Positions 16,836-57,546 of a stretch of 64,000 nucleotides of DNA are shown here, piece by piece. A program made the translations under genes and the position numbers. The DNA is taken from NCBI GenBank assembly GCA_013115145.1, contig JAAPAO010000102.1, forward strand, positions 123 through 64,122. Direction: 5' to 3'. The notes beneath the pieces are model-generated. The model was not told where the DNA came from. It did no database searches and was given only the letters and a program-made list of their open reading frames with translations. This stretch comes from Perkinsus chesapeaki (taxonomy: Eukaryota > Perkinsozoa > Perkinsida > Perkinsidae). Position 1 is the stretch's first letter. Each line of letters begins with the position of its first letter.

Positions 16836-19655
16836 TTACTGTGACGTTAGGTGGGTTATCGGGTAGAATTGTTGAATGTCTTCTTTGTTACCACCATATC
16901 TCTGCTCTAGCTGATCAGGACAGAAATACCTGGCAAAGTGATGATGCAAGTAGGAGAGCCCTGGACGAGGAGGATATAAAAAAACCAACCGTGGCTCAGG
17001 GCTTGACAACTTTGATGGCTGGAAAACGTGGAAACAAGCTCTTTTTCGACGAACAAAGAAGAATGGCTGGAGCGAGTTCAGTGGTAGAATGGGAGCACTA
17101 GACCCGTAATCGAAGAACAGACCGCCCAGCACGCCTTTAAAATGAATGACAAGAATAATGACAAAGAATATCAACAAAACAAGAAGCACAAAGAAGGCCT
17201 CGTGCGGAAAGTACGAAAGAAAAAGCCACGGTAACAGAACGATGATGTACATATCTGATTGATAAATGAGACCAACCTACTTCGCCAGATCTTCGTGTAA
17301 ATCCGTGACCACATGGTTCTTCTGCAACTGCCTCTCAGTCATCAGTTTTCTCGCTACGTTCCAAACTACATTCTTCAAGAAGGATGGTAAATTAACAAGA
17401 TAAATGGCAGCCATTCGACCCATATAATGATGGGCTAGAACCTCACAGAAACTGCGTAACCATACCACCCAGTGTTGGAATATATGTATGTACTCGCCTG
17501 CATCAGTTGGCGAATAAAGAGAAAGGCTTGAGGGAATTTAACAACATTCTTTTCGACCGTTGCAACTACCAGAATATATTACCCATAACGGAGCCACACA
17601 TTACTTCTTACAATGTGCTATACTATAGCTATACATAGGTTATATATCTTATATAGCCTATATTACTAAATGGGAAGAGAGTATATTGCCAAGGGAGTTT
17701 TACAGAAATCAATCGACAAAGATGGCGAGTATCCCAATACTGATCCCGAGAATTGTCAGACTATGATTTATTGTATCTGCCAGCTTGCTCTTTTCTACCA
17801 TTTTCTTCTCACTACTACTGTATACACCGAGGATTGTTCACAGCTGCTTACTTTATAGAGGGCGTAAGCCGTTGAGAATGGCACGTCAAATCCAAGGCCA
17901 CTAAAGTCTGCAATTACTACTATGGATTCTACTTTACTCGGCAGCAACATGTACCTAACCAGTGCATGGCATTTGGGGACAGAAATTGTGTCCAAGTTAC
18001 CGAGTGATGAACTCGAGGATGAAAACGCTTGTACGAATAGCTCTCTCTTTGGAGACTCGGGCTTTCACTAAAAGGCTCGGCCGCACCACTAGGCAGGGTC
18101 GCAATTGCTTATCGCGGCCACACACATACACAAATCCCTAAACACAAAAGGGCTGGGCCGAGAATCGAACTCGGGACCTCTCGCACCCAAAGCGAGAATC
18201 ATACCACTAGACCACACAGCCGATACGAGAACCGTTATATAGAAAGCTACTCCTTATTATTGTCAAACTAACGTTTAACCAATCCTCACCGCATTCAACT
18301 CTCGTAACAAATCCGTATCTCCCACTGGCTGTTTGAAATACTCCAATCCTACCAATGACACCACTTCTATCACTACTAGCTCAGTCTCTCACTCCATTCT
18401 TGAGTTTCAATCAGTTCCCTCGCCGCCCGATCAACATTAAAGCGGGCATGATACAAGTACCTTTCACAGATGCCGATCATGACGGATAAGTCTCATACTA
18501 GCAATCGAATTAATCGGGATTCTGCTCAAAAGAGCTGCATTGAACATCCTATATACCCGCTACAGTTGAGATGAGGTTCGTCCAACCATATCGCCCGGAC
18601 GTTCTCAATACTATCATCTCAGCCATGCGTCTCACATAGTGGAGCAAGCCCCCGACCTCCGGTCGATTAACTAAGTTTATCATTGGATGCTATCACTGCA
18701 GGCTGAAAAGCTCTTACCATCACCGCCAGTGGTGGTAACAGATTTTCCAGTGGTCCATCGGTGGGGTTTGATGGGGCCAAAGCGGGCCAAAATTATTACA
18801 ATAATAATATATAATATATTTTAATATACCTATAATATTACCCCGCAAAGAAATAGTTGAGATTCACAACATATACGTCACACCTTTCCGCACGTTTTTA
18901 CCAGAGTTCCCGTTCGCCCAATAGTTCAGTACCCAACTCACAGCTATCATTATGACTAATACGCATTATACTCATAACCTCACGAATCGGACGGCCTACC
19001 CAAAGTACTACCGTAAAATCCTGGGCTCCAACTGTCTGGCCAGCGTTACTCCTCGTGCAGCCAGCACTCTGTACACTTCTTCGATGGCTTCCAGTTCATG
19101 GGGCATGAGATCTACCTGATACCCATCATGGAGGGGTGAGGATCCAATTATGGAATCTATGGTCATCGAAAGAGAAACAAATCCATTTACGATGATAATA
19201 GTTTCATTTATATCCACTGAAGCTCAATTGCTGGACATCCAAACCAGCTGAGGGATTTCCGGAGTAACTTGTCCCCTTCAGTTGGCTGCTTACCACCATC
19301 AGTTGACAACTTTCTTGCTTTAAGTGCCAACTTGGCACTTGCAGCAAGTGAAAGCAAGTGTTTCACACTTTCCTAGAATAACTCGAATTCTGCCCTCATC
19401 AGTTATGCGTAGTACAGACTACCAGCCATGATGGATCCAAGCACTTGCAGGGTTTAGAGTTTGTATGGTTCAGCTATACAAACCCGAAACCCCACATTGC
19501 TGCCATTCGCCACGCACTACTACATTGAGGAATATTCTCCTTTCATAATCCCCATTAGTAAACCTCGAGAACATGTCCGCATCTTCCAGCTCTCGCAGGA
19601 GCACTTCCGGTGGCAGTGTGTAGTCCCCTATGGCGGAGTCCACCGCAATGCTCAT
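16836..19655 (-). CDS. Sec14-like CRAL-TRIO lipid-binding protein
   Basis: A minus-strand gene with many short exons. A likely N-terminal exon starts at 19655 (MSIAVDSAIGDYTLPPEVLL), and another exon lies near 19130-19020 (DLMPHELEAIEEVYRVLAAR). The CRAL-TRIO N-lobe follows: RYLYHARFNVDRAARELIET. The lipid-binding domain runs GFVYVCGRDKQLRPCLVVRP, RTSVFILEFITR, VESIVVIADFSGLGF, then CEVLAHHYMGRMAAIYLVN and VHEDLAK. It ends YFCPDQLEQRYGGNKEDIQQ before the stop at 16836. These segments match the Sec14 family in order. Proteins of this family bind and exchange phosphatidylinositol, phosphatidylcholine or other lipids in the cytosol. An intact tRNA-Pro gene sits in the intron just before GFVYVCGRD, on the same strand. 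The first exons and their joins are the least certain part. Confidence 0.75.
18150..18221 (-). tRNA. tRNA-Pro (UGG), nested in an intron
   Basis: A 72-nt cloverleaf on the minus strand: acceptor GGCTGTG with one weak pair, D-arm GTCTAGTGGTATGAT, anticodon arm CTCGC-TTTGGGT-GCGAG with anticodon TGG, T-arm CCGAG-TTCGATT-CTCGG. It lies in sense orientation inside an intron of the Sec14-like gene; the 3' splice site (TTTGTGTTTAG) is only a few bases downstream of the tRNA 3' end. Confidence 0.95.
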
Positions 19656-19812
19656 ACAGCAAACACAATCACTGTCCCCCCAACCTCATTATTAAGAACT
19701 CCAGCCATTAACACTTATACGGGAAACAAACTCGATTGCGGTATTTTATGGTAACCAACTATTATGAATGAATAAAGCACAGAGAATAGAAACAGCTTCG
19801 CACGGCCAGCGC

Positions 19813-20317: not shown

Positions 20318-20397
20318 GGCGCAGTGACGCAACAGACGCTCGTTAGCCTCACAGAAAAATGTCCTATCAGCGAAAACGCACGTCACATTCTCTCTTC

Positions 20398-20670: not shown

Positions 20671-21022
20671 CATTACGAATGCATTGAGTCAGAAAATCCT
20701 GTTGGTTGCTTAGGATATCACTAGTACAAGGAGACAATCCAATAATAACATTATATTGAAGGAATGATAGCAACCACATTGCTCAATGATGTCGCAGTGG
20801 AACCAAAATATCCTATAAAGACCTTCTACGCGCTGTATTTAATAATATATTATTTTTACCACTACTTATACCACGACCATATACACAGGGCATTCATGTC
20901 ACTGTACTCCAAGATCAATGGAAAAATCAAATACAAGTTATTATCACTATATATACAATCTACAATTTAATATACGTTATTATATACAACATACCCATAC
21001 AATATAAATCAATTAACTGCCA

Positions 21023-25020: not shown

Positions 25021-25410
25021 GTTTAAAATATCGTATAATAGAGTTGAAGATATCTTATAGTAGAGTTAAAGACATCTTATAGTAGAGTTAAAGATATCTT
25101 ATAGTAGAGTTAAAGGTATCTTATAGTAGAGTTAAAGATATCTTATAGTAGAGTTAAAGATATCCTTTAATGGAGTTAAAGATATCTTATAGNNNNNNNN
25201 NNNNNNNNNNNNNNNNNNNNNNNNNNNNNNNNNNNNNNNNNNNNNNNNNNNNNNNNNNNNNNNNNNNNNNNNNNNNNNNNNNNNNNNNNTATCTTATAGT
25301 AGAGTTAAAGATATCTTATAGTAGAGTTAAAGATATCCTTTAATGGAGTTAAAGATATCTTATAATAGAGTTAAGGATATCCTTTAATGGAACTAAAGAT
25401 ATCTTATAGT
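25021..25410. repeat. 22-bp A/T-rich satellite array
   Basis: Tandem copies of a 22-bp unit (AGTTAAAGATATCTTATAGT followed by AG), interrupted by a run of N. A variant unit has CCTTTAATGG in place of CTTATAGTAG. The array ends only about 16 bp before the proposed start codon of the cyclase gene at 25426, so it lies in its promoter or 5' UTR. Confidence 0.95.
25193..25289. other. Assembly gap (97 N)
   Basis: Run of undetermined bases inside the 22-bp satellite. The true array length is therefore unknown. Confidence 0.99.
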
Positions 25411-28400: not shown

Positions 28401-30316
28401 GCCAGGCTCGAACGGGCCTGTCGAGATTGTGGGACATCGTTACGGTAGGGCCTCCTGATCGTGGGAGTGTTTTTATTGTTTTTCTATCAGTTCCAAGGCG
28501 CCCGCTCCAGTGACGGAGGTCATGAGTAAGTCGTACTACTTTCATACTGTTCAACTTGATCCTCTCATTCGTAGACCGCTCGAGACCGTCATGCTCGAAA
28601 AGACTATCATCAAGATCGGTAGCCTGTTGGCTCTGGGATTCGGGGAGGCGGGGGCCGAAATCATCGGCAAGAATATGCAGGTGAGCAACGTCTGGTAAAA
28701 AGCGCCTTGCAGGGCGGAAAACGCCGTCTTAGGGAGCTGAGAGGTCGGCCGGAGTGAATGCCATGATTCCTGGACGAAAGGTCAACGCTGTTTTTGGCTT
28801 TTGCGACATTCGCAACTTCACTGATGCCACTGAAGTTCTCAAGGACAAAGTGATGCTGTTCGTGAACCAGGTGAGCCTATTTGACATAGCCGCAATCACG
28901 CCACCTTGTTGGTTCAGATTGGAGAGATCGTGCACGGCATAGTCGACGAGTTCCATGGCGCCCCCAACAAAAATATCGGCGATGCATTCCTTGTGAGCGC
29001 TGAAGCGACACTCTTCATACTTACTAACTGACAGATCGTTTGGCGATTACCGGAGGACAACTCGGACCGGCGAAGAAAAATGTGTGACATGGCGATCATG
29101 TCATTCGTCAAGGTAAAGCTGCAAACCAGCGAAAACCTTCAAGCTCAGCTCTCCAGGTTGTCGCTGCCATTAATCGAAGTCCAGTACTGTATGAGTATCG
29201 GCAGCATCCGGGATTGCAAATGCGATTGGCAAACTACAGGTGGGCCAACTCGGTGACTATCTCTCATGCTTGGAAATCGTTTCAGGGTTCGAATGGGCTT
29301 CGGTATGCATTGTGGATGGGCTATCGAAGGTGCCATAGGCTCGGAGTTTAAGATCGATGCAAGCTATTTGTCACCTAACGTCAATGTTGCTGGTCAATTA
29401 GAAGCTGCCACGAAGGCATATGGGGTAAAGATTATCCGGGCCGTTGGAAATGGGATCTCTCGTGTGGGTGTGTAGCTCAGTGGTAGAGCGGCTGACTGCA
29501 GATCAGCAGGTCCTCGGTTCAAATCCGGGCGCGCCCTTTGTTTTAGGTTTGCATGCTCCTATCCGGCGCTCTGATTGACTCTTGCAACAAGGAATTGCGA
29601 CGGTACCACTCATGAACCTTTTAGCATTCCGAACCCTTTCTCATTCTATCAGGCATTGTCGTATCATAGACAGAGTCATGATACACGGCGCTCCAATGGG
29701 CCTCTTCACCATCGATTTGGTCTACGAGCATCTCTCACTCGCGGAAAGCGCATGTAAGTCTTCATTAATGAACTTGTCCTCCCACTGGCATCTCTGCAGC
29801 GAAGCCTCTCCGAGTGCATATTAAAGGAGACCATCATACCAGCGCCAGCGCCCAACGGTGAGTACATCTCTGTTTTTCTGTGATGTCATCCTATATCGTT
29901 GCTGTCAGATTCAGAACCCGACAAGAACGGGAGGCAAGGAAGGCGAATAAATGGGCACCGAATTACTGCATTGCTGATTTGTTTGATCACCATGAAGACG
30001 TAATCGAGATGCGGAAGATCTTTACAGCCGAGTTTTTTAAGAAGTTCGATATGGGTTTTCGGTGAGCTCTATCGCGGCGACTATCTCTGCAGCACATTCT
30101 AGGAACTACGAAGCTGGCGAGTGGGAAGTGGCGTACAATATGTTTTGCGTGACTGAAAAGTTGCTCGCTTCAGAAGGATACACTGATGGGCCGAGTGCGG
30201 CTTTGAAGAGGTGGATCATAATGTATCGCGGTAACCTTGACTGTGACTTTAGGTATATGGACAAGTATAATAGGGAAGCCCCACCGACATGGAACGGTGC
30301 CCGAGAGTTACCGTAG
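25426..30316 (+). CDS. Voltage-sensor ion-channel-like domain fused to class III adenylyl cyclase
   Basis: A many-exon gene. The probable first exon is MVAKSSMPESQARVSRSVK (25426). S1-S2 segments follow: ILTLYALFGDDVRMASFDSD, TFNVITVICLLVFGLEIVFQ, GGFFFFLDVLSSASLVLD. The voltage sensor at about 26.33 kb is RAGTKAGRVVRIIRLIRL. Then ESRVGKKLSERTTQKL, ILILLMLFMIPVFTVSDV, and a last helix QTLFICLVLGIGALFF leading to VLGPIERMIVKLAKIKDNPL. The cyclase part has KIGSLLALGFGEAGAEIIGK, AVFGFCDIRNFTDATEVL (metal-binding Asp), IVDEFHGAPNKNIGDAF, RVRMGFGMHCGWAIEGAIGS, and HCRIIDRVMIHG. The conserved tail ends near NYEAGEWEVAYNMF and the stop is at 30316. Such fusions are known from ciliates, apicomplexans and dinoflagellates, where they make cAMP at membranes. 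No TxGYG filter was found. Intact tRNA-Cys lies in an intron. Confidence 0.85.
25924..26003 (+). repeat. 80-nt intron formed almost wholly of two perfect hairpins
   Basis: GT-AG intron between DSDADQ and TFNVITVIC of the cyclase gene. Arms 25933-25955 and 25957-25979 are exact 23-bp reverse complements with a one-base centre. GTGAATAA / TTATTCAC (25980-25996) forms a second palindrome directly after. Only the splice signals lie outside the hairpins. Confidence 0.9.
29466..29537 (+). tRNA. tRNA-Cys (GCA), nested in an intron
   Basis: A 72-nt cloverleaf: acceptor GGGTGTG/CGCGCCC, D-arm GCTC-AGTGGTA-GAGC, anticodon arm GCTGA-CTGCAGA-TCAGC with anticodon GCA, T-arm CTCGG-TTCAAAT-CCGGG. It sits in sense orientation in a cyclase intron. 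The only donors giving the right reading phase for the next exon are at 29462 or 29468, that is, at the 5' edge of the tRNA. Confidence 0.95.
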
Positions 30317-30463: not shown

Positions 30464-32164
30464 TCAAGCACCTTCACTGAAATCAAAATGCGCCGCCCCG
30501 CTCCTGCTAGCCACCGGAGTGTGAGGAACAACTCCAGAGGATACGCAACCGACAACTCGCTCGTGGAAGCCCCAAGGCTCCTCGTAGGAGGTCTGAAAGA
30601 CAAACAATCGAATTCGCGGCAATGCGGGTTTTACCTGTATGGTGACCAAGTCGGCACGGTCCTCAGTGGCTCCCAAATTGCTGTAACGTACATAGAGGAT
30701 GAAACCTATGGTGACGCCCACGACGCCGAATAGAGAATAAGGGGAAAAGGTTTCAGCATGGTCCTTGCCCATGAGAAAGGAACTGGTGTACAAGAGGCTC
30801 GATACCGGCAATTTAACAGCATAGGCTAGGGAGCACATAATAGCTCCAACCTGCAGTGCTGAGCCATAGCGGGTCACGGCAACACCAAGAACATTGAAAA
30901 CCAGATTAACCACACAGTAGGCCAAAAGGAGGGCACCGGCCGGACCTACTGAGAAGGTGAATGCATCCAGAAAGTTGAATACGACCGCGTGCGGCGCGAG
31001 CGGCACGCCGCCTGGTTGACCAGAGAGATAGGGAATGCATTGAAGGAAGCCGAGGCCGAATGATATAATAGTTTGGTAGCCAGCCACGTAGGCAGTCAGA
31101 GTCCAAACGCCCACACTGTAGTTACTGAAACCGGATTCCTTGTAGACGTTGGAGAGGGCCATTGGTATGTTGGACAGGAAATACCTGAGGAACGAAGTTG
31201 TCGAGGAATCTCGAATGAGAGAAACTCGTTTTGGAAGAGTCGGAGGATTTGAAAAGTGGACTAGAAATGTGGATGCCGTGATAACCTAAAATTAGGAAAT
31301 CGCAGTTAGGAAGTAACTTATCTAAAACTAACTACTAATTTCGAGTAACTCGTCACTCGTTGCTCTCGCAATTCCACCGAATACTTACAAACAGACCGAC
31401 AACCCGCTGCAGTTGGCCACAGTTACCCCACTGAACGAAGGGATCACGGTTATGCAAGCGCTGATGAAGACGATCGAGGCCGCGCCCTGAAACCAGCACT
31501 TTTGTTCAACTCCATCTTATCAAATCCTACTATCGATTTCATGCTGTAAGTGGTACCGAGTACCAACGCGCTGCACACCATCGTGACGGGGATCAGAGTC
31601 TGGTTGAGAACCGTCTGGAACTGACCAGGGGTTGACACCCCTCCAATGCTGCTGAGGAGTGTCCCCAGCCCGTCTAATAGGCCCATAATAGCGAACTTGT
31701 ATCTATGCGGGCTGGTAAGCAAATCCGAGGCTATTTTCCTACTGTGGTGGGACGCTTTCCTCGGGTCGCTTGGAGGCCTTCTTCTCGCTTTTCAGGACCA
31801 TGGCGGGGATAGCGGTCATGACCATATACCCGACATTGCAGAATTGGTCCACGAAAAATGCGTAACTACGAGGAGACGCTGCCGCCGTCGGCCCTGGACT
31901 GGCCACTCACTCCTGGCCGTAGATGTTTTGAACTATTTTACAGGACACATCGTTGATGCTTCCCGCAATACAAAGAAGTAGTGCAAGCACTATAAGCACG
32001 TTGCGTGGTTGGCAGAGATACTCTGTGCACGTTTGGCGGCGCGGTGTTGCCTCCTGAATAAAAAGAGTAACCGAAAGGTCCCCGGTTCGATCCGCGCTTC
32101 TTACAGTTTGCGCCAAGAGCGGTATCTCGAGTGGCGGCTGGACGCTGCCTTTAGTAGTTGCCAT
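30464..32164 (-). CDS. CRT-like transporter (chloroquine-resistance-transporter family)
   Basis: ATG at 32164 (MATTKGSVQPPLEIPLLAQT). A 51-nt intron holding a tRNA-like relic follows. Helix 1 is RNVLIVLALLLCIAGSINDV, and helix 2 is FFVDQFCNVGYMVMTAIPAM. The CRT signature exon reads FAIMGLLDGLGTLLSSIGG, TPGQFQTVLNQTLIPVTMV, LVLGTTYS. The second half starts ALSNVYKESGFSNYSVGVW and continues with helices FLDAFTFSVGPAGALLLAYC, VLGVAVTRYGSALQVGAIMC and YSLFGVVGVTIGFILYVRY. Proteins of this drug/metabolite-transporter subgroup move peptides, glutathione or amino acids across vacuolar, digestive or plastid membranes in alveolates and plants. The C-terminal 50 residues and the stop at 30464 are uncertain because an intron may remove part of them. 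Confidence 0.85.
32054..32104 (+). other. 51-nt intron containing an antisense tRNA 3'-half relic
   Basis: GT-AG intron of the minus-strand CRT-like gene. Read on the plus strand it carries a T-arm/B-box (CCCCGGTTCGATCCGCG) with a 7-nt acceptor-like stretch ending 3 nt from the intron boundary. It is too short for a whole tRNA. Confidence 0.6.
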
Positions 32165-39355: not shown

Positions 39356-42300
39356 ATGTTGCGTTCTCAATTGCCGGGTAAACAGTATGACCTCATCTTA
39401 GGGTCCAGCGCTACCATGCTGGTATCATCATCACCACCTGTAAAGCGGTTAGCTACCATTGCTGCACCGCGTTTGGTGAGGGGGAGGAAGCCGCCGGCTA
39501 ATACTCGAGATGTAACCTACTATCCTAGTACGAACGTTTGCCAAGGCATCTATGTAGTCGCCGAAATCCACAAGCTCGATTGGCTTCTACGAGCAGCTGG
39601 CTCGCGAGAGCCCCCTGTGCAAAGCCGCACTGGAGTTGAGGTCTCGAGCAAGAACAGAACGTCGATCACCGAAGTTGCAGAAGGAATGGGCAGGGCTAGC
39701 CCGGCGTATCACCGCTTCGGTAAGTGGAGAAAATTTGCGGTTTGTGATTTCGGCGATGGCAGGCGGGCGATTTGAAGCCCAGCGAGGCTGCGGTTTTGTG
39801 TCATTTTCTGTCGGGGAATCTCCCACAGGACCACAGGGATGCGAAGGAAGCATTGGCTGCAGTAGCTGCGTCTCACTTTTATTCGAAGCTGGCAAACTGG
39901 ACGGGGAAAGTGAGTTTGGGACGGTGGAAATCGGTTTGCATTATTGTCGTTAACTTGGGCTCGTTTACCTGAGTATTTCGTCGCAGTAAGCCTCTTATGC
40001 CAGATAGATTCCGCCTAGTGGTGAAGCACGGGTTCTACGGGTCAGTTGTTGGTCGAACTGCGCCCTCGGACTGGCAGGCCAACTCTTTGTGGATAAACTA
40101 GGCAGCATCAAACCATCGTTGCTCTTCATCATCTCTGTCCGAGTTCCGGTTGAATTTTGCACACCTCGCTTAGGGCCCTTGCTCAGCGTACTTACTCTGA
40201 AACCAGTCGCCCACTGTCGCCGTCCGCCCCCGGACGAAATCCCCGGGCAGCTCGAATACCCTGCAATGCTGGCCGTTGCAACAGCACACGGCGGATGTTG
40301 CTCTGTTATTCATTTAGTGTACAGAGCATTAGGTCTGGTTTTATTTAGGAGCTCGCCATGTGGTCCACCGCGGCAACGGTACATTTCCCCATTGTCACTC
40401 GAGAGGCTTATCGAGTCTTCCTGGATCACATAGGGAAGAACATCGATCACCTGGATGCGAACGACGCCGCTGTGCTGGCCTCAGCGCTGATGCGGAACAA
40501 GGAAAAGATGCATTCTAGTCTGAGGAAGCATGTCAACGATGTGAGAATGCACTCTGTGGGATTCGAACCTGCGCCGTTGTGTGGCCGTATTGTTATATTG
40601 ACTACTATATTGTGAACTTCGATACATTCTCTCCCACGTAATTCCAGCGTCAGTTATTCATCTCGACTCGACGTGCCTAACAAACGCGGGCCCGTTTTAT
40701 AATAGTCGTATCAGGATGAGACTGCAGTATATGCTTTCTATTTGCACTGAGCTGCGTATTCAAGACTTTCCTCCATTTACCGTAAGCTCACGTGTACGCC
40801 TCACACGCTGCAGCCTGCGGTTGTATTCAGCCTCTCGAGCTAGGTTGAGCTATTACTACCGCTGGTCTGTACTGTTCTACTGGAATATCTTCCTTGAGGG
40901 GTGAAAGTATCCCTACCGCGAAGATATCTTCTTTAAAGGGGGGAGCTCCGAATGCTAACCTCCTGAGAGTATTTGAGCATCTCTATCACTTCTTAGGTTG
41001 CGAGGAATCTGGTGAAGTCGCTTCCAGCAAAGTTGCCATCAATGACCCCGATGTCGATAGTGCAAGCTGCCCAACTAGTCCCCGCTGGCAAGGTCGGCAC
41101 TCACCGGCTGATCATGCAAGAGCTGGCCACTCGAACCGACATCACAGCCGCTACGTGGGGCCAGATCCTGCGACTCTATGCCGAGGGGAATAATGAGTGG
41201 ATTGGTGAGGTGTGGGGGAAGATAAACGAAGCTTTGTTGGCAGCCGATGGCAAAACGACGGCGATTGTTCTCAACGCGCTCGCTCGAGCTCACCCGAAAA
41301 GCGCTAACATACGGCAGTTCGTTTTGCAAGTAGAGGAGCGGCCAAGGGGCTGGGACGTGCACAGTGCGGCCATCACGTGCATTTCCATGGCGAGACTTGG
41401 TCAAGTCCAGAATGCCATCGACAGCCCTGAGCTCGACGGCAACTTCGCGAAGCTGCAAGAATACCTGCTCACGCAGGACCTACGGCGATCAAGTATGTTG
41501 CAGTTGAAGCAGATTGCATTAGGGTTTTCCTTGGCCTTTAACACCAAGGTTTCTAAGGAGCTTTGGAAAGCCATAGCTTTGGCGGCTGTCGACGAGCAGA
41601 TCCCGGGCACGGCGGAAGACCGAATAGGTGTCTTAGGGTGCCTGTCGACCGGATATCCACTGGGCAAGGCAACCCGAGAAATTGAAGCGCTTGTGAAATC
41701 GGTCGGTGAGAAAACCGATTTTCGAAAGTTGAGCTCCAGAAGCCTGAACCTGTTTACAATGAAGCTGGTCAAGATGCGATATTTTCCGAGTGACACCATG
41801 GCCAAAGTCGAGGCGTGCATTGTCGAAGATCCCGATAAGTTCGTTCCGAACGGTGAGGCCGTACTCTCGGTGATTCACTACCTATTTGCCTGCAATTCTG
41901 GCAACCTGGCGTTGTGGAAAACTGTCGAGGCCAAACTGAATGCGTTGCATGAGACGATGCGAACGGAGGATCTGTTGCCTTCTGTGGGCTTCATGACTAC
42001 CTCCAACCGCCGCCCTTCGGAGAGCGTCGCAACTGATGTGTTGGCGCGTTCAGCAGAGCCGGGAGCGGACGTGCAGGAAGCTTTAAGAGCACTGGTTGGG
42101 TTGTGCAAAGCGGATCTCGCGCTTGATCTGCCTGTGCATCACCCAACGCTGGAAATCCTGATGACTATACACAAGAAGGAGCTTCAAACGGAAGTTTTGC
42201 GCGACTGTATCGATATGGTGTGCCAGGTGGCTCTCTATTCTGGGTCCTCTGAACTGATATGCGAAATAATTTGTAATTTTTCTAAAGTCAAATTGCGGAA

Positions 42301-42666: not shown

Positions 42667-42738
42667 TAACCCCGGCGGGACTTGAACCCGCAACCTTCGG
42701 CTCCGGAAACCGACGCGCTTCCATTGCGCCACGAGGTC
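42667..42738 (-). tRNA. tRNA-Arg (CCG), copy 1
   Basis: A 72-nt cloverleaf on the minus strand: acceptor GACCTCG/CGGGGTT, D-arm GCGC-AATGGAA-GCGC, anticodon arm TCGGT-TTCCGGA-GCCGA with anticodon CCG, T-arm GCGGG-TTCAAGT-CCCGC. Part of a 320-bp duplicated block. Confidence 0.95.
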
Positions 42739-46281: not shown

Positions 46282-46353
46282 TAACCCCGGCGGGACTTGA
46301 ACCCGCAACCTTCGGCTCCGGAAACCGACGCGCTTCCATTGCGCCACGAGGTC
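46282..46353 (-). tRNA. tRNA-Arg (CCG), copy 2
   Basis: Identical in sequence to the tRNA at 42667-42738, so both copies can fold. Anticodon CCG. Confidence 0.95.
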
Positions 46354-48814: not shown

Positions 48815-49954
48815 CTACCACAATTCTACCACAACATCGCTAGCGGTATCGCTAAGCCCCAATGAGCCAGGAATGAGCTTGGGTCTTCCCCTGCTATGTG
48901 GTCGAGATTGCGGCGGCCTCAAGGGTAGACTGCCTGGCTGCTGTTTTCCTCTGGTGCGGACTGGCGGGGTTGCCTAAATGGTAGTTTCTGATAGATGCAA
49001 GCCCAATAGAGGTGCTACCCGCTGAGGATTTGCAAGGAATGGTGGAACCAACGACAACGCTCCTGGCAGTTGAGGAAGAGGGGTAGCGGGTACGGTGGTG
49101 TCCTACGAGGAATCAGAATCACTCTTGAATTTCATGTCTTAAAGGCTCCCCAAGTGAGTAAAAGAATAGAAAAATACCCGATGCAGGATTCGAACCTACG
49201 ACCATCTGCTCCGTAGGCAGACATTCTATCCAGCTGAACTAATCGGGCGATGATTTCTTTCCTCAAATCGAATACTCTTTCAGATATTACCTCTGCGTCG
49301 GGGGGAGGATACATCGGTCTGGTCGCTGAAGACTCCTGAATGCACAAAATTGAACGGCGCCGAACACTCGTTCAAGTCGGCGGCAAACAACGCGAAACTA
49401 TTTTATAGACTTCTCCTTACCACATCTGTTGCTTCGATTTCTCCACCAAACGAGACCGTGGGTGGTGAACTAGGGACTGCTCCAGATACCTATAACACAG
49501 CGTACTCATCTCCGCACATGACACGTGACAAGCCCAATTACCTCCGAGAACCGATGTCTTCCCAAAGACGCTCTTCCACTACTGGAGAACAACTAACTAC
49601 TCCATATGATACAATGTCCTACCTCATCGACCCTCGCTTTAACGAGCTCCGCTGGGAAGTTCGCTGCCGCACGTCCTACAACAGCAAGACTATGCCCTCC
49701 GAAATCATGTCGCTTTACTTCCTGTATTCTCGCCAACTCTCGCATGCGCTCCGACACAGCCACGAGGCCCTCCTCCAACTGCAAGAATCTCGCACCCACA
49801 CTCTAAGATAGTTTCCGTCCCAACAACTGTGAGAACTCCCTACCTGTTCCACCAGGCTCAGAATCCTGCCTTCAATCGAGGGGAGGTCTCCGTCACCATC
49901 CTCGCCAGCATTATCGTGGACCGCTGGAGCATCGCCACTCCTGATAGGCGCCAA
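48815..49954 (-). CDS. Hypothetical Pro-rich protein with an N-terminal helix
   Basis: ATG 49954: MAPIRSGDAPAVHDNAGEDG then GRILSLVEQ, a 41-nt intron, and VGARFLQLEEGLVAVSERMR with ANFPAELVKARVDE (a likely coiled helix). After a gap comes an exon SSATRPMYPPPDAE, then a 189-nt intron (49103-49291) holding tRNA-Arg. The last exons are TTVPATPLPQLPGALSLVP, PPFLANPQR and ATPPVRTRGKQQPGSLPLRP, ending VVVELW at 48815. The Pro/Arg-rich tail suggests an adaptor or nuclear protein; no family is recognised. Adjacent to and same strand as the K+-channel gene, whose stop is 22 bp upstream of this start. Confidence 0.5.
49175..49248 (-). tRNA. tRNA-Arg (ACG), nested in an intron
   Basis: A 74-nt cloverleaf on the minus strand: acceptor GCCCGAT/ATCGGGT, D-arm GTTC-AGCTGGATA-GAAT, anticodon arm TCTGC-CTACGGA-GCAGA with anticodon ACG, T-arm GTAGG-TTCGAAT-CCTGC. 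It lies in sense orientation in a 189-nt intron of the Pro-rich protein gene. Confidence 0.95.
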
Positions 49955-49975: not shown

Positions 49976-52900
49976 TTAGTACGTCGGGAGCTCTGAACTC
50001 CTCGGGGACACCTTTGCCTGTTTCGGCATCTCTCTAATCATCCGATGAGTTCGTTCTGAGGGAATTTTCAAATCTCGCGCGCCACAAAATTAACCCTTAC
50101 TGTCCGCACGGCGATCATGTACCAAATCATCGGACTCCTCGTTCGGCGGAGGCTCCGGGTCGGGGACTAGCCTACCGCCAACGGCCATCCGACCGACGCA
50201 GGTTCGATTCCCCCTCATGGCATTTTACCTTTCTGACGATTTCCTCTTTTCCCTGTCGTAGAGCCATTCTCTATATGATGCTGCTGAGGACTCAGACGCT
50301 CGCCGAGCATCTTGAATGTCAGGGCTGATCAGTCCCAAAAAGGGAGTTCCCGCCGTGGACAGTCTGACGAGAAAATGTCGCCGCCAGGGTTCGAACTCGG
50401 GTGCCCACCGTCGCATGCTATCCTGGACCGAGTGTCTCACCGACGACCTCCGAGATACATCTGGGGTCCCTACCGACTCCGTCTTATCACGCTAAGGAGC
50501 ACAATCGTCCCATTTCCCGCGCGCCATGAAATTACCTCCGTGCCCTCAACACTATCTCTTTCGCCCGTTTTAAAACGATAGAGAAACGTTTCCGGAAACA
50601 TCGTTCTGGCGAATTCCGCGAACGAGATCGAACCCGACATATCTTCGTCGAACACCTGGCACACTGGGTGTTCAATCAACCTTCCAGGAATCTTACGTGG
50701 AAGAGCTCAATGATTCGGTCCTCTCTCAGCCCTGTTCCCATCGTCGTCATCATCAGGCGAAACTCATCGATGTCGATCTCACCGGAGCTGTCTTGGTCAA
50801 AAGCCTTGAACGCTTCCTCAACCTGATTTGAGGGAAAGTCGGTATGAGATCCTTTCAGCCTCCACAGCAAAAACGATGACAAGCTTAGCAAGACCTGTCC
50901 ATGCTCCCAGTGGAGGAAGAAACCCCCTCAGGCCAACCAACATTCGGGGCCTTTTCCTATCCACCTCTGCCGTCCATGAACCCGTAGTGGGACACACAAC
51001 ATGTGTCGTTTTCTATCAGCTGCATATTTCGAGCTACACTTTCTATAATATGTCCCCGTCAGTAATATTTATCGGGAGAAGCAGAAAGTTTCCGCGAGGT
51101 GGCCCTATCTCCGTGGGACCGCACGAGCCCTGGTTGATACCGCTGATGAGCCATAGCCAAGGTCCGTGAGCCTTTGCTTAGTTTTCTCAACCACCAGGAT
51201 CTTATCCCTATCCAACCACACCAACGTGAAATTGGACCCCACAATCGACAGAGGCATCGCCATGTACCTAGCAAGGAATAAAATAATAACAACAATCCCG
51301 CACGGGTTCGATCCCGGGTAGCTCCATTTTGAACTTACATCACTCCAGCTATTATGAGTACAGCACTGATCAACTGACCAGCGACAGTCTCAGGCGAGAC
51401 ATCTCCATACCCAACAGTGCTGATGGTAACTATACTGAACCACATAGCCTGAGGAATACCTAACAAAAATCATGAAACATGAATCGCTTCGCTCCGCTCA
51501 TTTTCGTTACTGTCAATTTTGGGGTTGGTTTCCCGTTCAAAAAAGTATATTAAAGCTGCACTGGAGATAACCATAATCAACAATAAGAATAGCGGCACCT
51601 GAAGACCATACAGATGGTGTAATAACAAGCCCGAAGCTCGCTCGCCACCACGGCCTTCTAGTGGCCACGATTCCGCTGGTAGAGCTCTTGAGCTTGAGAA
51701 CTGGGGGATATCGAACAGCTGGCTGGTACGTAACGTACCAGTCAGCTGTTCGATACCTTGAGGGGCACGTAATGTACGTTAAGTGCAGTGGATAGCGGGA
51801 GAGAACTGGATCGAGAGCAAAGCATTCTTTATAGGTTCCGGAGTCCATGGTAGGAACGCATACATGTGCGGGCCTATCTATGTTGGGGAGGAACGAAAAC
51901 TTTAAGGAAATTCCAGAAAATTGCGAAAAATTTTTCCATTTTCCGCCATTAACAAGAGTACTTATCAGAAACCACTGGCGAGGTAATGTCACTCCTCGCC
52001 TGACTGAAGGAGCGGATGGAACCTTTTCCATCTTTTCTAACTTTTTTCGAACGTGTCGAGCTGCAAGGAGCTACGCGCTGACATTGCACTCACCGGAAGG
52101 GACTCCGCCGACATGCTCAAAGCACGGATGAGTAGCTGAAAGCCATCGAAGTTTCGGGTAACCTGTGACGCTTCGCTCCGCTAAATATGTTTGCGACATT
52201 TACCTTCAATAGACGAAGAATAGGCCGAAGGATGTTTATAAGCTCAAAAGCGGCATCTTCCTGGGCCTCGGGGAACAAAACCCAAATATAAAATGGCAGA
52301 ATGGTTAATATCTACGTGCAATAATCGATCGACGCGAGTTCGAATCCCAGCTAGTACATCAATGCAATTGTAGAAGTTCCTCAAGAACTTCCTCCTGTTC
52401 GGGTACACTGCTACTCGTATAAGCAACTGACCCGAGAACTCCACCAACACTGGATTCCGCCGTCCCACCTCAGCCGTGAAAATCATATTAACAACGACAT
52501 CTATGGTCGTCCAAAATCCATAATTATGATACTCCGGCACGGTTTGCAACTGAAAGCACCTAACGTCCACCGGAGATAAAACATGAATTTGAGCCCAGAT
52601 ACCCTAGAAATGACAACGACTTCTCGAACTGGGGATATCAAACCGTGATGTAACCATACGATTTTAATGTGATGTAACGACTAGCTCGAATAGCTCGATC
52701 GAACTGGGGAAATTGAGCAGCTCGAGTACAGTCTATCTTTTTTATCGACTATCCCGCACTCGATAGAATTCTGTTCGTCAGATCATTCGTCCTTTATAAC
52801 TCAGGCTTCGCCTATCTAAACTCACGGTGGTGAACACCTCCGCCCAACCCATCAAAGTAATGCTCTACCAACCTCACAAGCATCTTTGGCGTTATTGCCT

Positions 52901-53433
52901 GTCGATATAACTAGACAATTTTATGCGACGTGGAAGGATAAGGTTCAAGTGACGGGACCGAACAAATTGGGCGATATCATCCGATTCTGTGAGATTCTTC
53001 CTCCGTGCTGGCGTCCAACGCCAAAGGAAGTTCTACCTTGTCAAGATTAAGATGAGAGTGATGCTAAACATTTCAAATGTTTCATACAAAATTGTTTCCC
53101 GTTTATTCCCTTCAAAGAAGTAAAGAACGCCAGCAAGCCATGCCGATTTGCTTACGATAATCGCAGTGACGGAAGATACGATAATGAAGCTCATCATAGA
53201 TGAATAGGCCAAAGCCATCCGACTGCTATCTAAAAAATAAAAATACCGCGACAGGGATTGAACCAACGCCCTCTATAATGGAAGTGAGGCGCTTTCCCTG
53301 CTGATCTAGTAGACCTCCTCCTACTTGGCTCCTCCATAAATAACCAGAGCCTTTCCCGCCATGATCGCGTTACGCCAACTCCTCCAAATTTATCAAGAAG
53401 TATCCTCCTCGAACTACGCCGTCGCATATCCAC
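49976..53433 (-). CDS. Voltage-gated K+ channel with C-terminal EF-hands
   Basis: Begins MDMRRRSSRRILLDKFGGVG at 53433, then WLFMEEPSRR|SSRMALAYSS and helix S1 MSFIIVSSVTAIIV. S2 is FWTTIDVVVNMIFTAE. S3 is RRKFLRNFYNCID. S4 is EDAAFELINILRPILRLLK with VTRNFDGFQLLIRALSMSAE, which has fewer arginines than usual. S5 is VPLFLLLIMVISSAALIYFF. The pore is IPQAMWFSIVTISTVGYGDV with a K+ filter, then S6 GQLISAVLIIAGVM. Two EF-hands follow: AFKAFDQDSSGEIDIDEF and VFDEDMSGSISFAEF, both with the expected loop acids. The tail ends SPRSSELPTY at 49976. It is a plasma-membrane or vacuolar K+ channel likely tuned by calcium. At least five introns hold tRNA-like relics and two more have the GCGCGC core. Confidence 0.88.
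50056..50100 (-). other. GCGCGC-core short intron, 45 nt
   Basis: Last intron of the K+-channel gene. Core inverted relative to the gene (AATTTTGTGGCGCGCGAGA). Splicing keeps the frame to the terminal stop. Confidence 0.75.
50172..50228 (+). other. 57-nt intron with antisense tRNA 3'-half relic
   Basis: Intron of the minus-strand K+-channel gene. On the plus strand it holds a B-box (GCAGGTTCGATTCC) followed by an acceptor-like stretch close to the intron edge. Splicing joins SSER to LVPDPEPPPNEE in frame. Confidence 0.6.
50364..50447 (-). other. 84-nt intron formed by a sense tRNA-like sequence
   Basis: The only donor preserving the frame (GTPDVSR|RLSTAGTP) places the 5' splice site exactly at the first base of a 71-nt tRNA-like unit. 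The unit has acceptor arms GTCGTCG/CGGCGAC (7 bp pairing), a D-arm-like region, and T-arm CCGAG-TTCGAAC-CCTGG with one mismatch. The anticodon arm is degenerate. A short pyrimidine tail ending CGTCAG supplies the 3' splice site. Confidence 0.7.
50492..50535 (-). other. GCGCGC-core short intron, 44 nt
   Basis: Intron between the second EF-hand exon and RDKTESVG in the K+-channel gene. Core inverted relative to the gene (AATTTCATGGCGCGCGGGA), beginning 3 nt after the 5' splice site. Confidence 0.75.
51268..51338 (+). other. 71-nt intron with antisense tRNA 3'-half relic
   Basis: Intron directly after S6 (LIIAGVM) of the K+-channel gene. On the plus strand it has T-arm CGGG-TTCGATC-CCGG followed by an acceptor-like TAGCTCCA; the 5' tRNA half is absent. 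Confidence 0.65.
51709..51755. repeat. 23-bp hairpin inside a K+-channel intron
   Basis: TATCGAACAGCTGGCTGGTA and its reverse complement, with one mismatch, face each other around ACGTAACGT. It lies in the ~500-nt intron between the S4 exon (SAESLP) and the S5 exon (VPLFLLL). On the gene strand it is flanked by its own GTATCG and CCCCCAG, as if it had been an intron by itself. Confidence 0.8.
52261..52357 (+). other. 97-nt intron with antisense tRNA-like relic (A- and B-box)
   Basis: Intron after NFYNCID of the K+-channel gene. On the plus strand it shows an A-box-like TGGCAGAATGGTTAATA and a B-box GAGTTCGAATCCC. The intron edge coincides with the tRNA 3' end (CAGCTAGTAC). Confidence 0.65.
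53226..53314 (-). other. 89-nt intron with sense tRNA-like relic
   Basis: First intron of the K+-channel gene. From its first base it shows a D-arm-like TAGATCAGCAGGGAAAGCGC, a hairpin CGCCTC/GAGGGCG in the anticodon position with an enlarged loop, and a B-box TTGGTTCAATCCC. Acceptor pairing is lost. Confidence 0.6.
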
Positions 53434-54598
53434 CTGATTTATACGTGCTTCAACCTAAGATACCTCTCCATCGAGCGCATCTAGAGTTCATTACAATCCA
53501 TAAGCGGAACTGAATTCCAATTTTCAACCGCAAAATGCAGTCAAGACCATCCTTCAGAAGTAAGAGCGTACTCGACCACACATGTACGAGCAAAACCAAT
53601 AAAACTGGGCAGAATCTTGGTCAATTCTTCCCGACTCCCTAGTGCTAAGAACTCAGGATAAAAAGTATATAGTAATGATTGTAGTGATAGGTGACTGTGA
53701 TGCAGTGAATGATAGTAATGATATACCAGGATTGGTAAAACCACATCCTGTCATTAAGTCGCAATTCCACTTCAGCGTTATTTTACACTTTGTCTTCATA
53801 ACTTAGCTCTGCCAACTGCCGTACCGTTCTTATAGAGCTATGGAGCGTACGAAAAAGGCTATCTAGTCGTGTAAGTTAAAGTTTAAGGAACGAAGATGAA
53901 TAGAAAAATAACAGATCAATGCTTTCATATAATGTTTAATAAAATACCAAGTGAATGAGTAGTTCAGTCTCCTACATGACCCCTCGAAATACGGTTTTTC
54001 TATCAGAATCCATCCCAGTATACTACTGTAGGCCTCCTCTCATCATCAGAAGGAACCTCCGATTCGCAGACCACTACACTCTGTCTGGAAACAGTAGTCG
54101 AGCCTCTGAAAATTGCACAATTCAATCTGTCCCCTCCAGGCCTCAGCCCAGCAATAGGCATTACGTTGCTCGCTTTTCATGTTCGTCACTATCTGGCGTT
54201 TCTAAACGCTCATTAGCCATCGACTGGTGTTCAACAGTTCAAAGGAAGGACAACTCACAAACTGCGCAGATGTAAAAAGCGCACGCCCGACTAATCGATT
54301 TAGCGCGCAGAATTCCTCGGCATCAAATGGCTAGAAAATACATCATATACTTGACCATACGGGTAAAACTAGGTGTCGTAAAATTATGTTATTGGTTTGC
54401 AAAGGGAGATATCATTCATCATCAGATGTAGCTAAATTTCCTGTGACCTTAGCGAATTCATCCCGGTCACCTCGGGCATTCTTTAAAAGTTGGTATCACA
54501 GCGGTCTGTCCCTCGATTTTGCAAATCATATATATTATCTGTCATGGTTCACATACATCCCGATTCAACGATCCATCTGTTCAGTCATTTCGTACATT
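53434..54598. other. Intergenic, nothing recognised
   Basis: About 1.2 kb between the divergently transcribed K+-channel gene (minus) and the first lipase-like gene (plus). Plus-strand open frame 53955-54275 is Ser/Pro-rich with no domain. Probably holds both promoters. Confidence 0.5.
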
Positions 54599-57546
54599 AT
54601 GTGTTTATATGTCTGTTGTGCCTGTTGCTGCGCCAGTGGTGCTGGCTGTATGGCCTATCAGTGCCGAGGTGATGCTAGAGAAATGAGAAAATTAGAAAAA
54701 GGCGAAGCCAGGTAAATCCTCATTGAGCCTCACTTTACGATCGTGAGTCCATCCTGCACCCATTCGACCAGCTCCTCCAGCCCTCTGGAAGGTGAAAACT
54801 GTAGAATAGTTGGTTTTTGCAAAAATATTTCGATTCCGGGATTATTCGACATAGTACCGCTTCCTTAAGAAGATATCTGTCCCCTTTTCAGACGCCTTGA
54901 ATTCCCTCCGGAAAGCTTCTCCGCACCAGGCGAGCCTCTACTAACAGATGAAGACGAGCAGGATTATCGGCAATATGAAAATGCCGTTTTCGTAGAGAAA
55001 TCGGCAGAGTCGGGGTCACTGAAGATATGGTAATATACGTTGGCTCTCCAGGAATCCCTTAATGAGTGGGTTTACTCAGTAAAGTAGCGCGTAATGAACT
55101 AGTCTACTATCCGCGTAAAACTCGATCTGTCTTGGCTCTAGGGCTCAGTTATGTTGATAGTACTTCCTATTAGGCTCTTCCATCATGTAGCACTCGTAGT
55201 AGTATGGCCATACAATTCACTCTTTGGTATTAACAAGTAGACACGCCGCTGCTCTAAATCGAAAATATGTGATTGATACTCTTGCACAAATTCAGTATTG
55301 GTGATTTTGCGATCTTCTCGGTTGGCCACGAGAAACCGAGTCCCAGCGTCGACCACTGCTGAGGGGCTTAGCGCAGTCGCGGTCTGCGTAGGGTAGTACC
55401 AAATTAATTTGGATTGGGGGATAAAGTCGTTATCGTTAAGCTGTGCAAAAGCAACATAAGAACGTCGAGACAGTGCAATGTAAGTTGTATGATTGCGCTG
55501 CCCATACCTTTTCCAGAAGGCTTAAATTATTACCATAAATCCGTCTGATCGTATTGTTTTATACCCTCTCTGTTCCCGTAGGTACAAGACATATTTCCCA
55601 GCTTCCGAGGGTGACATCACCTGTATTATAGTTGGTTATCATCCTTATATAAGCAACTCGGAGTATCTAATGAAGAACCATGCAAGGTGGGTCCTATCTC
55701 AACCTAACCTCGAAAATATCTTTGCAGATGCCTTCGACATTTCGAAAAGGCCGCTGTGATATTATTCGATCAGCCTAGTTGTGGTCGAAGTGACGGTCTT
55801 TGGGGGTAGTAGTGACCGAGAGGGCAATTTTGAGGTAATTCTTGTGCAGGTTCATGCCCTCCTGGGAGGACCATGTTGCTTTGACTGAGAAGTTCGTACG
55901 CAAGGTAACTCCGGGCGTTCGGGGAATAAGGAATATTGCAAACCAGATGCGATGTTGCCCCTTGGAGTGCTTGGCCTTGATTCTCTCCGCAGTGCCATAT
56001 ATTGTGCGAGCGTAATAGGTCATTTCAAAACCCACATCGCTCCGCTAAATAATACGGAGATTCCGAAAAAGTGGAAGTTTTGTATCTTTAGAAGTCAGCT
56101 TCGCAGGATTTGTGTGTTTAGAGTCATCCTTTGTTGTTCGGTACGGCTCGTCTCGTCCTGCTCCGCCGTGTCGAAGCGGCTTCTGCTGTCCGTTACCGCT
56201 TCACACTTTTGTTTTGTGTCAGGTCGTTGTCCCCCTTCGAGACCGTATAACCTCCGAGCAGCATAAGTTCATACCGATTTATGGTTTCGGTGAGGATATC
56301 GGCGCTAATGTCCTCGCCACATCTGCATTGCGATCGTAAGCCGTTGCGCATGCGTGCATTCCATACCGCTCTCTCCTCTAGGCCTGATATTTATAACGGT
56401 ATCATTCTGGCCTCTCCCTTCATCCGCGATGGCGATGCGGTTAAAGCTGGTGGATTCGCTAGTAAGTTGTAGACAGTCATTTTCATACCGCTCCTTCCTA
56501 TTCGAACCTTAAATTATTGCACAGTATCCTGCAGCTCAACTCTGACAGAATGCGGTTTTTCTATCAGATTTTCTGGCCAAATGTGAAGGCTCCATCTTTC
56601 CCAAGTACCCCGGCGCGCCTTTGAAGGAGGCTTTAGATAAGCGTTTTGTAGACAAGGACTTCTCCGACTACACCAGTAAGTTGCTCCTTACTAGCTCACA
56701 CTCCTACCGACCGAGTTCATGAGAGGCCAAGATCTCTCCAGAAACCTAAGCCCTGAAATCAGGCTCGAGAGCTTGATTACGCATAATGTTTTTCGGGAGT
56801 ATTTAGTAGCGATCGTATTTCGTACAGAGAAACTGGAGGGGCTAAGAAGTTCCATCACAGCTTGGGATTTGGTCTGTTATTGTTGTTGCTAAGATGGATT
56901 ATGAGGATCCTATAGGTACCGAGAACAAATTAATGTGGAGAATGCCGCTTAGAATGAAAACAAATAAGTCGATCAAACAGGGACAGAAATGGCTCGAGAA
57001 ACATTCTGCCGAGCTGACAACTCCGATCTTGGTAGGGGTCTTTTTCTAGACTGGCGAGTGGGATGGGTTGATTTGGCAGATTCTTCAATCGTCCAATGAT
57101 AAGATAACTTCGCCTGACGGATCTAAGCTGCTGTATGATTTGTGTGGAAGTAAAGACAAGTGTATAAAGATGTATGATGACTGCCCCGAGGCGGGACTAA
57201 AGTAGGGCAGCCGAGGATCGAACCGGGGTCGTTAGCATGACAGGCTTGTGTTAGGTATGCTCACGAACTGCTCAGTGCAGAGCCTGCTGAAATGTCCAAG
57301 CCGGTCTATAATGACATCACGACGTGGGTGAGTGCTCGTAAAATCCGTGCAGAACCTCTTCATTCGTCAACTCCACGAGGACAACATACCGCAGCTTCAA
57401 CTCCTCAAATTGCACCCTCGGGGGCCGCTTCGGCCGGTGCCACCCAAGCTGCTCCTTCGGCCGGTGCCACCCAAGCTGCTCCTTCGGCCGGTGCCACCCA
57501 AGCCGCTCCTTCGGCCGGTGCCACTCAAGCCGCTCCTCATAATTGA
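54599..57546 (+). CDS. Monoglyceride-lipase-like alpha/beta hydrolase, copy 1 (altered catalytic residues)
   Basis: The Cys-rich start MCLYVCCACCCASGAGCMAY is likely palmitoylated. Exons pair one-to-one with copy 2: RRLEFPPESFSAPGEPLLTD; YKTYFPASEGDITCIIVGYH; RCLRHFEKAAVILFDQPSCG; FMPSWEDHVALTEKFVRK; VVVPLRDRITSEQHKFIPIY followed by GFGEDIGANVLATSALRS; RPDIYNGIILASPFIRDGDA; KYPGAPLKEALDKRFVDKDF. Then ILQSSNDKITSPDGSKLLYD and AGLKYAHELLSAEPAEMSKP, and a tail of PSAGATQAA repeats. The nucleophile elbow is G-E-D-I-G, with Asp where lipases have Ser, and the oxyanion HGYSDHS of copy 2 reads HPYISNS. The Asp (NDK) and His (YAHE) partners are kept. It may be a pseudoenzyme or an Asp-nucleophile hydrolase. 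Intron 57202-57254 holds a tRNA-like relic. Confidence 0.75.
57202..57254 (-). other. 53-nt intron with antisense tRNA-like relic
   Basis: GT-AG intron between PEAGLK and YAHELL. Its complement has a B-box (CCCCGGTTCGATCCTCGG), an acceptor-like GGCTGCCC ending 3 nt from the donor, and an ATGCTAA anticodon-loop-like segment; the D-arm half is missing. Confidence 0.6.
57420..57543 (+). repeat. 27-bp coding tandem repeat (PSAGATQAA)
   Basis: About four copies of a 27-bp unit (GCCGGTGCCACCCAAGCTGC plus CTCCTTCG) at the very 3' end of lipase-like copy 1, encoding a 9-residue Ala/Gly/Ser/Thr/Gln repeat before the stop. Confidence 0.95.

What the first reader, a model, noticed from the sequence alone, without database searches (positions are those of the whole stretch)
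18150..57254. Many introns contain tRNA genes or tRNA-derived relics: candidate tRNA-derived intron gain
Seen directly: twelve introns in eight genes hold an intact tRNA (Pro 18150, Cys 29466, Arg-ACG 49175) or a tRNA-like relic (21576, 32054, 40541, 50172, 50364, 51268, 52261, 53226, 57202). Six are sense and six antisense to the host gene; five are in one K+-channel gene. In the antisense cases the complement of the tRNA T-arm (B-box GGTTCGANTCC) sits roughly 10-30 nt after the 5' splice site, often with the tRNA 3' end 0-3 nt from the boundary. At 50447, and probably at 29462-29468, the donor coincides with the tRNA 5' end. B-box-like sequences of this quality should be rare by chance in 64 kb. 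Inference: a tRNA-derived element, or tRNA genes themselves, inserted into exons and became introns, then decayed at the 5' half.
Basis: partly seen in the sequence, partly recalled or inferred. Interest (0 to 1): 0.9.

Follow-up and report, generated by a model that had tools for sequence, protein, structure and literature searches.

The report
Introns made from tRNA gene pieces
In this single-celled parasite (very probably a Perkinsus species) many short introns consist largely of the tail piece of a tRNA gene, in either direction, which suggests that pieces of tRNA genes have been turned into new introns.

Summary
In window plus contig C664 (230 kb) a T-arm profile gives 28 hits against 2-3 in controls; 8 are intact tRNAs and 18 count as tRNA-like elements. 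Conservation covers about 37 bp: B box, 3' acceptor strand, T-run. A self-trained gene model puts 11 of 18 in introns, 7 of them in introns of 57 nt or less. Protein homology supports the junctions of seven element introns (39, 44, 45, 46, 53, 71 and 95 nt). Paralogues lack the intron at two sites. These are not plain decaying tRNAs: the B box stays intact while T-stem pairing is at chance, and the A box is mostly lost. I favour introner-like creation of introns by tRNA-derived elements; insertion into older introns followed by shrinkage is not excluded.

The parts
53230..53324 (-). 95-nt intron in the S1 region of a K+ channel; sense tRNA-like element with T-run TATTTTTATTTTTTAG as 3' splice region
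   Evidence: read by hand; junction EEPN|SSRMA ungapped against Kv channels (E 0.007) and P0033; core 53238-53274 scores 24.6 bits; A-box trace at 2 mismatches
52312..52357 (-). 46-nt intron in the S3 region of the same channel; antisense 3'-tRNA element
   Evidence: hand-read (sequence); junction NCID|ILTILPFY ungapped; 25.7 bits
51268..51338 (-). 71-nt intron in the S6 region of the same channel; GTAAGTTCAAAA followed by antisense 3'-tRNA element
   Evidence: gene model; junction GVM|YMAMPLSIVGSNF ungapped; paralogue L115 reads GVSYMAMPLSIIGS without interruption
50172..50228 (-). 57-nt intron downstream of the EF hands; GTAAAA followed by antisense 3'-tRNA element
   Evidence: gene model; unspliced frame hits TAA at once (hand reading); no homologue checked
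50364..50447 (-). sense tRNA relic with 7-bp acceptor stem (by eye); probably coding, not an intron
   Evidence: 26.8 bits; called exon; open frame
57202..57254 (+). 53-nt intron in a monoglyceride-lipase-like gene; antisense 3'-tRNA element
   Evidence: gene model; ungapped against P. olseni P0001 across the junction
32054..32104 (-). 51-nt predicted intron, antisense element, upstream of CRT-like domain
   Evidence: gene model only; the 51 nt are also open in frame, so splicing unproven
40541..40996 (+). 456-nt predicted intron; antisense element whose tRNA 3' end lies 7 nt from the donor
   Evidence: gene model only
29466..29537 (+). intact tRNA-Cys(GCA) inside predicted intron 29425-29546 of an adenylate-cyclase-like gene
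   Evidence: cyclase homology stops one residue past the junction
49175..49248 (-). intact tRNA-Arg(ACG) inside predicted intron 49103-49290
18150..18221 (-). intact tRNA-Pro(TGG), between predicted genes

Best explanation
A heterogeneous family of short elements derived from tRNA genes, mainly their 3' part (variable loop, T arm with B box, 3' acceptor strand, Pol III T-run), has inserted into protein genes of this Perkinsus-like genome in both orientations, and copies are spliced out as introns. In sense, GT near the variable or anticodon loop is the donor and T-run plus YAG the acceptor; in antisense the complement of the T-run sits beside a GTAAG/GTAAAA-type donor. The 37-bp core nearly fills a minimal 41-50 nt intron. 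B box and terminator persist because they matter (Pol III/TFIIIC signals used for copying, or a TFIIIC site), while the tRNA fold does not. Shown: the sequence family, its excess in short introns, junctions in seven introns, absence at the site in paralogues, loss of T-stem pairing. Inferred: insertion as the origin of the intron, mobility, and any Pol III or TFIIIC role.
For: Excess: 751 vs 88 genome-wide; 25 hits >=19 bits vs 0-0.2 in controls in 230 kb. Context: 11 of 18 in introns vs 25.7% of sequence, P=0.0016; 7 of 18 in introns <=57 nt vs 8.5%, P=0.0004. Sample not chosen for splice sites: 20 of 42 non-intact B-box loci hold a 38-58 nt GT-AG frame of score >=7 vs 15.5% of random positions (at >=5, 25 of 42 vs 37.9%; at >=9, 10 of 42 vs 4.6%). 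In 35 loci hand-picked (20 of 85, 15 of 54) for donor plus B box, a YAG falls 39-54 nt from the donor in 28, 14.5 expected. Junctions: V-ATPase a 39 nt, BMS1 45 nt, lipase 53 nt, K+ channel 95, 46 and 71 nt, oxidoreductase 44 nt. Empty sites: three V-ATPase paralogues, K+ channel paralogues. Similar introns on different contigs: 11 pairs at E<=1e-5 among 39, one in opposite orientation. B box kept, T stem lost. T-run kept in unselected antisense intronic elements: 25 of 36 positions T.
Against: No orthologous empty site from another species. The three V-ATPase paralogues lie in long open frames (786-821 aa) and may be retrocopies, so absence there may be loss. A non-element intron is also missing in K+ channel paralogues. 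Intact tRNAs sit in predicted introns of 122-188 nt and 145-148 nt, a possible starting point for insertion into older introns; intact tRNAs also fit short-intron frames above random (6 of 18 at >=7). Traces of an A box at 2 mismatches (3 of 18, 7 of 42) mean some elements came as whole tRNA genes. No consistent target-site duplication by eye. The 11 similar pairs are inflated because 28 of the 39 introns were chosen for donor and exact B box, and the 39 include the 50364 case that is probably exonic. 22 of 42 sampled elements lie in unassigned DNA in 701-bp context and 5 in predicted exons. Against intergenic plus intronic DNA alone, 11 of 16 in introns gives only P=0.06 (13 of 16 after hand correction, P=0.004).
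Confidence: 0.55

Rival explanations
1. tRNA genes inserted into pre-existing introns, then decayed and shrank with their host intron to the ~45-nt optimum; no intron was created.
For: Intact tRNAs occur in predicted introns of 122-188 nt and 145-148 nt, i.e. tRNA plus roughly one ordinary intron or more. Predicted intron length peaks sharply at 41-50 nt, which could favour shrinkage. A-box traces in a minority of elements.
Against: Short introns are 8.5% of sequence, and a random 37-mer (8-nt overhang allowed) lies inside one 3.3% of the time, against 7 of 18. In the 39-46 nt introns about 31-37 nt are element core, leaving little of an older intron. By eye the 95-nt K+ channel intron is a tRNA-length relic plus about 24 nt. 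A-box words beyond the intact tRNAs show no excess at 1 mismatch (30 found including the 8 exact, 23.8 in shuffles), so 5' remnants are much rarer than 3' ones.
Confidence: 0.24
2. TFIIIC-only (ETC/COC-like) sites: dispersed tRNA genes lost their RNA function, but the B box is kept by selection as a chromatin or boundary element, and introns are simply a tolerated place in a gene-dense genome.
For: B-box mismatches 0.22 of 10 while T-stem pairs are 1.5 of 3 versus 2.4-2.7 expected under decay at the thresholds tried. Yeast ZOD1 is an ancient tRNA gene, and ETC sites carry conserved B boxes without Pol III (PMC5356446, PMC12409998, passages read).
Against: Does not explain T-run retention in antisense introns (25 of 36), the fit to whole short introns, or several elements within one K+ channel gene.
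Confidence: 0.15
3. Chance or splice-signal convergence: B-box-like words arise because TTCGAA acts as branch point in both strands.
For: TTCGAA is palindromic and, by eye, lies roughly 13-30 nt from the acceptor in both orientations.
Against: 293 non-element introns show no TTCGA preference (10 occurrences, no preferred place); an 11-bp motif is far above chance genome-wide.
Confidence: 0.03

Closest known systems
Introners (PMC9860276, passages read)
   Same: introns at different places share sequence up to near both splice sites, in both orientations, in many copies
   Different: tRNA-derived; ~37-bp core, no TIR and no consistent TSD seen, high divergence, host genes not compared for paralogy here; a term count of that paper's main text gives 0 for tRNA, SINE and Perkinsus
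ETC / COC TFIIIC sites and ZOD1-type tRNA relics (PMC5356446, PMC12409998, passages; COC recalled)
   Same: B box kept, Pol III gene function lost, tRNA ancestry
   Different: here they form entire spliceosomal introns and keep the T-run; TFIIIC binding unknown
tRNA-derived SINEs and tRNA retropseudogenes (recalled)
   Same: Pol III signals, dispersed copies, loss of the 5' part
   Different: no tRNA-unrelated body or tail seen, A box mostly absent; the acceptor 3' strand is retained
Dada transposons of P. marinus inserted in tRNA genes (PMC3706591, passages)
   Same: Perkinsus, many tRNA genes (>500 copies in five types)
   Different: they target tRNA genes; no transposase or long element is part of the short introns described here

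Membership tests
Introner (operational definition of PMC9860276) | pairwise intron similarity at BLAST E<=1e-5 in non-paralogous genes, family of at least 4 | tested here: inconclusive
   11 pairs at E<=1e-5 among 39 introns with database size set to 7 Mb, but 28 of the 39 were selected for donor and exact B box; host proteins were not compared for paralogy
Introner | similarity reaches near both splice sites | tested here: met
   for some pairs, e.g. L095-L111 and C664_146-L122 align over nearly the whole intron; others end earlier
Introner | TSD and/or TIR (only some families have them) | tested here: inconclusive
   none consistent at the boundaries printed, judged by eye; not tested statistically
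Introner | demonstrated insertion/absence polymorphism | tested here: inconclusive
   absent in paralogues, but these may be retrocopies or old duplicates
ETC site | conserved B box without a functional Pol III gene | tested here: met
   sequence only:
ETC site | TFIIIC occupancy without TFIIIB/Pol III | not testable with these tools
   needs ChIP
tRNA gene | paired T stem, A box, cloverleaf | tested here: not met
   T-stem pairs 31, 39, 41 of 80, at chance; A box within 1 mismatch 0 of 18 and 1 of 42, intact controls 18 of 18; no Rfam match of the window's elements
tRNA-derived SINE | A and B boxes plus tRNA-unrelated body and tail | tested here: not met
   conservation stops at about -10 and +26; A box mostly absent

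The most novel reading that the evidence does not exclude
Pol III-driven introners: a lineage of minimal retroelements, descended from tRNA 3' halves and needing only a B box and a T-run, copies itself into exons in either orientation and supplies ready-made ~45-nt spliceosomal introns. Some intact tRNA genes already contain such an intron: tRNA-Thr(AGT) has GTAAG in its anticodon loop, and in one copy (L043) GTAAG to TTTTTCAG spans 46 nt (sequence, counted by hand).
Probability: 0.3. Interest if true: 0.92.

Novelty: new variant of a known kind. Interest (0 to 1): 0.8.

Why it matters
Where spliceosomal introns come from is a long-standing question; many known bursts are traced to transposon-like introners. 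A genome in which tRNA gene pieces, in both orientations, are whole introns offers another, datable source and makes intron birth testable by comparing Perkinsus species. It also raises the possibility that Pol III signals inside Pol II introns are kept by selection.

Tried and rejected
Simple neutral tRNA relics: rejected by simulation (uniform divergence 0-60%, 14 isotypes; none of 20,000 resampled means as low as observed at any of three thresholds). Purely 3'-half elements: not upheld for all, since A-box traces within 2 mismatches occur in 3 of 18 and 7 of 42. Branch-point explanation: disfavoured. Shared flanks (segmental duplication): noticed for L080/L097 and checked with L153; other flanks were compared by eye only; L097 was dropped from a later count (79 elements). 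A chimera idea (5' and 3' sides of the B box from different tRNAs): between-side similarity r=0.05, P=0.09; within-side r=0.09-0.11, P<0.01; unresolved. An exonised insertion beside the lipase intron was considered (8 residues more than the human enzyme), but P. olseni has corresponding residues, so it is not recent. The SRPK-like intron at C664 140959 and the PDE-like one at 142949 have uncertain boundaries and were not counted as verified, though both stand among the 11 intronic elements and the first among the 7 short ones. A pattern search with wrong spacing found nothing. Literature, judged from listings and abstract starts: searches show no paper on tRNA-derived spliceosomal introns or on introners of Perkinsus; the library lacks most subscription papers.

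Dropped rows and biases: before the 18-element counts I removed 8 intact tRNAs, one reverse-strand duplicate (51288) and one 16.5-bit hit (58839) from 28 hits. ARAGORN also called a tRNA-Ala inside the giant ORF of C664, which I left out. That 66-kb ORF was left out of gene-model statistics. The 60 sampled loci are the first 63 listed minus three inside the window; about 12% of exact B-box hits are expected by chance. The 35 loci were picked by hand, partly for tRNA-like look, so their T-run counts are biased and the unselected counts are used instead.

Full report
Organism. The window lies at C5:123-64122 of a 35.4-Mb, 884-contig assembly with spliceosomal introns. A lipase-like protein is 79% identical to P. 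olseni. I infer a Perkinsus species other than P. olseni.

Presence of the signal. ARAGORN and Rfam find five intact tRNAs in the window. GGTTCGANTCC occurs 751 times genome-wide against 88 for the reversed pattern. In the window alone the one-mismatch word is only modestly enriched, 10 against 3.6 in two-strand shuffles. I fetched 60 loci around exact sites: 18 hold an intact tRNA, 42 do not. In the 42, conservation runs from about 10 bp before to 26 bp after the B-box start: variable loop with C48, B box, a CAG/CGG-like triplet, GGC-A and a T-run. A profile trained on these and iterated, applied to window plus contig C664 (230 kb), gives 28 hits at >=13 bits against 2-3 in controls, and 25 at >=19 bits against 0-0.2. 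Eighteen remain after removing eight intact tRNAs, one reverse duplicate and one weak hit.

Introns. A hidden Markov gene model, self-trained on window and C664 without the giant ORF, predicts 473 introns with a sharp mode at 41-50 nt that was not imposed beyond a 35-nt minimum. It puts 11 of 18 elements in introns, 5 in unassigned DNA and 2 in exons. Two of the five unassigned (K+ channel S1 and S3) become introns when read by hand with homology. Seven of 18 fall in introns of <=57 nt, which make up 8.5% of the sequence (P=0.0004); nine after hand correction. Relative to non-coding DNA only, the intron excess is weaker (11 of 16, P=0.06). In the 701-bp loci the model of 42 non-intact elements intronic (11 sense, 4 antisense), 22 unassigned and 5 exonic; intact tRNAs 2 of 18.

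Junction checks by protein homology. V-ATPase subunit a, 39-nt sense intron, ungapped at the junction. BMS1, 45-nt sense, ungapped at the junction with a 2-residue gap some residues upstream. Lipase-like, 53-nt antisense. K+ channel with EF hands: S1 95 nt sense, S3 46 nt antisense, S6 71 nt antisense. FAD oxidoreductase, 44-nt antisense after correcting the model's donor by hand. A PKA-like kinase (L127) reads FQYLHN|MNIIYRDLKPENL across a 43-nt antisense element intron (sequence, motif judged by eye). The SRPK-like case shows a 4-residue excess beside the junction and the PDE-like case was not tested.

Genome-wide architecture. GTRAG lies 2-14 nt upstream of the B box at 85 places (control 6); about 22 of these are intact tRNA-Thr(AGT), whose anticodon loop contains GTAAG (counted by eye). 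The antisense equivalent occurs at 54 places (control 2), some of them intact tRNAs. I picked 20 and 15 of these by hand: a YAG lies 39-54 nt from the donor in 28 of 35, 14.5 expected from shuffled tails. Without selecting for a donor, 20 of 42 elements hold a 38-58 nt GT-AG frame of score >=7 against 15.5% of random positions; intact tRNAs 6 of 18.

Presence and absence. Three V-ATPase paralogues on C318 (55-62% identity) match without a break across the site. In the K+ channel, hits on C187 (two), C446 and C828 span the S6 element site, and L115 from C187 reads through it. The V-ATPase paralogues lie in long open frames and may be retrocopies; a non-element intron of the K+ channel is also missing in paralogues. 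So the introns are gene-specific, but gain is not separated from loss. The lipase and K+ S3 queries found only themselves.

Not plain decay. If these were neutrally decaying tRNA ends passing the same threshold, T-stem pairs 49-65, 50-64, 51-63 should average 2.4-2.7 of 3; they average 1.5 of 3, although the B box has 0.22 mismatches of 10. In 46 confident elements the pairs form in 21, 23 and 26 cases against 19, 24 and 24 expected from shuffled columns, and in 80, which add the hand-picked loci, in 31, 39 and 41 against 34, 40 and 43: no covariation. In the 25 intact tRNA sequences tested all three pairs form. The eight exact A-box words in window plus C664 outside the giant ORF are those of the eight intact tRNAs; at 1 mismatch 30 are found against 23.8 in shuffles. 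Upstream of the elements an A box within 1 mismatch is found in 0 of 18 and 1 of 42, within 2 mismatches in 3 of 18 and 7 of 42 (random 4.5%), and in 18 of 18 intact controls. So the A box is mostly lost, with traces in a minority that probably began as whole tRNA genes. The T-run persists: 25 of 36 positions in nine antisense intronic elements and 25 of 36 in the other nine. Pol III promoter and terminator signals thus persist better than the RNA fold.

Mobility. Pairs of elements are more alike outside the B box than shuffled columns allow (>=22 of 26: 4 vs 0.14), and 11 pairs among 39 introns reach E<=1e-5, one in opposite orientation. Selection of those loci inflates this, and common tRNA ancestry could also produce it. 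Among the elements fetched no near-identical copies at different sites were seen apart from L080/L097, whose flanks match too.

Reading. The best-supported account is intron creation by tRNA-derived elements, introner-like, with Pol III signals retained either because they serve copying or because they bind TFIIIC. Insertion into older introns with shrinkage is the main rival. Scaling 10 elements in C664 (166 kb) gives roughly 2,000 genome-wide, an order-of-magnitude figure only.

Noticed in passing
G000:C664:34148-100156, minus strand: One uninterrupted 22,003-codon ORF of SSLSLRSFARLGS-type repeats; none of the 28 profile hits lies in it.
   Followed up: no
G000:C318:16237-22645: Three V-ATPase subunit a paralogues close together in long open frames (786-821 aa), while the C664 gene is predicted intron-rich.
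   Followed up: partly
window 42667-42738 and 46282-46353: Two tRNA-Arg(CCG) genes with similar flanking sequence on one side, a local duplication.
   Followed up: no
window about 50560-53324, minus strand: Voltage-gated K+ channel fused to EF hands; similar proteins in P. marinus, dinoflagellate transcriptomes and environmental sets.
   Followed up: partly
window 1-131 and 25023-25408: Tandem repeats of 28/56 and 22/44 bp; the first is close to a contig end.
   Followed up: no
window 57428-57537: About four 27-bp repeats coding for PSAGATQAA repeats at the C terminus of the lipase-like protein.
   Followed up: no
window 8066-8126: Palindrome-like stretch matching unrelated miRNA models on both strands, all below their cut-offs.
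   Followed up: no
G000 genome-wide: Seven of 19 further tRNAs fetched, chosen for distinct scores, are tRNA-Ile(TAT) variants.
   Followed up: no
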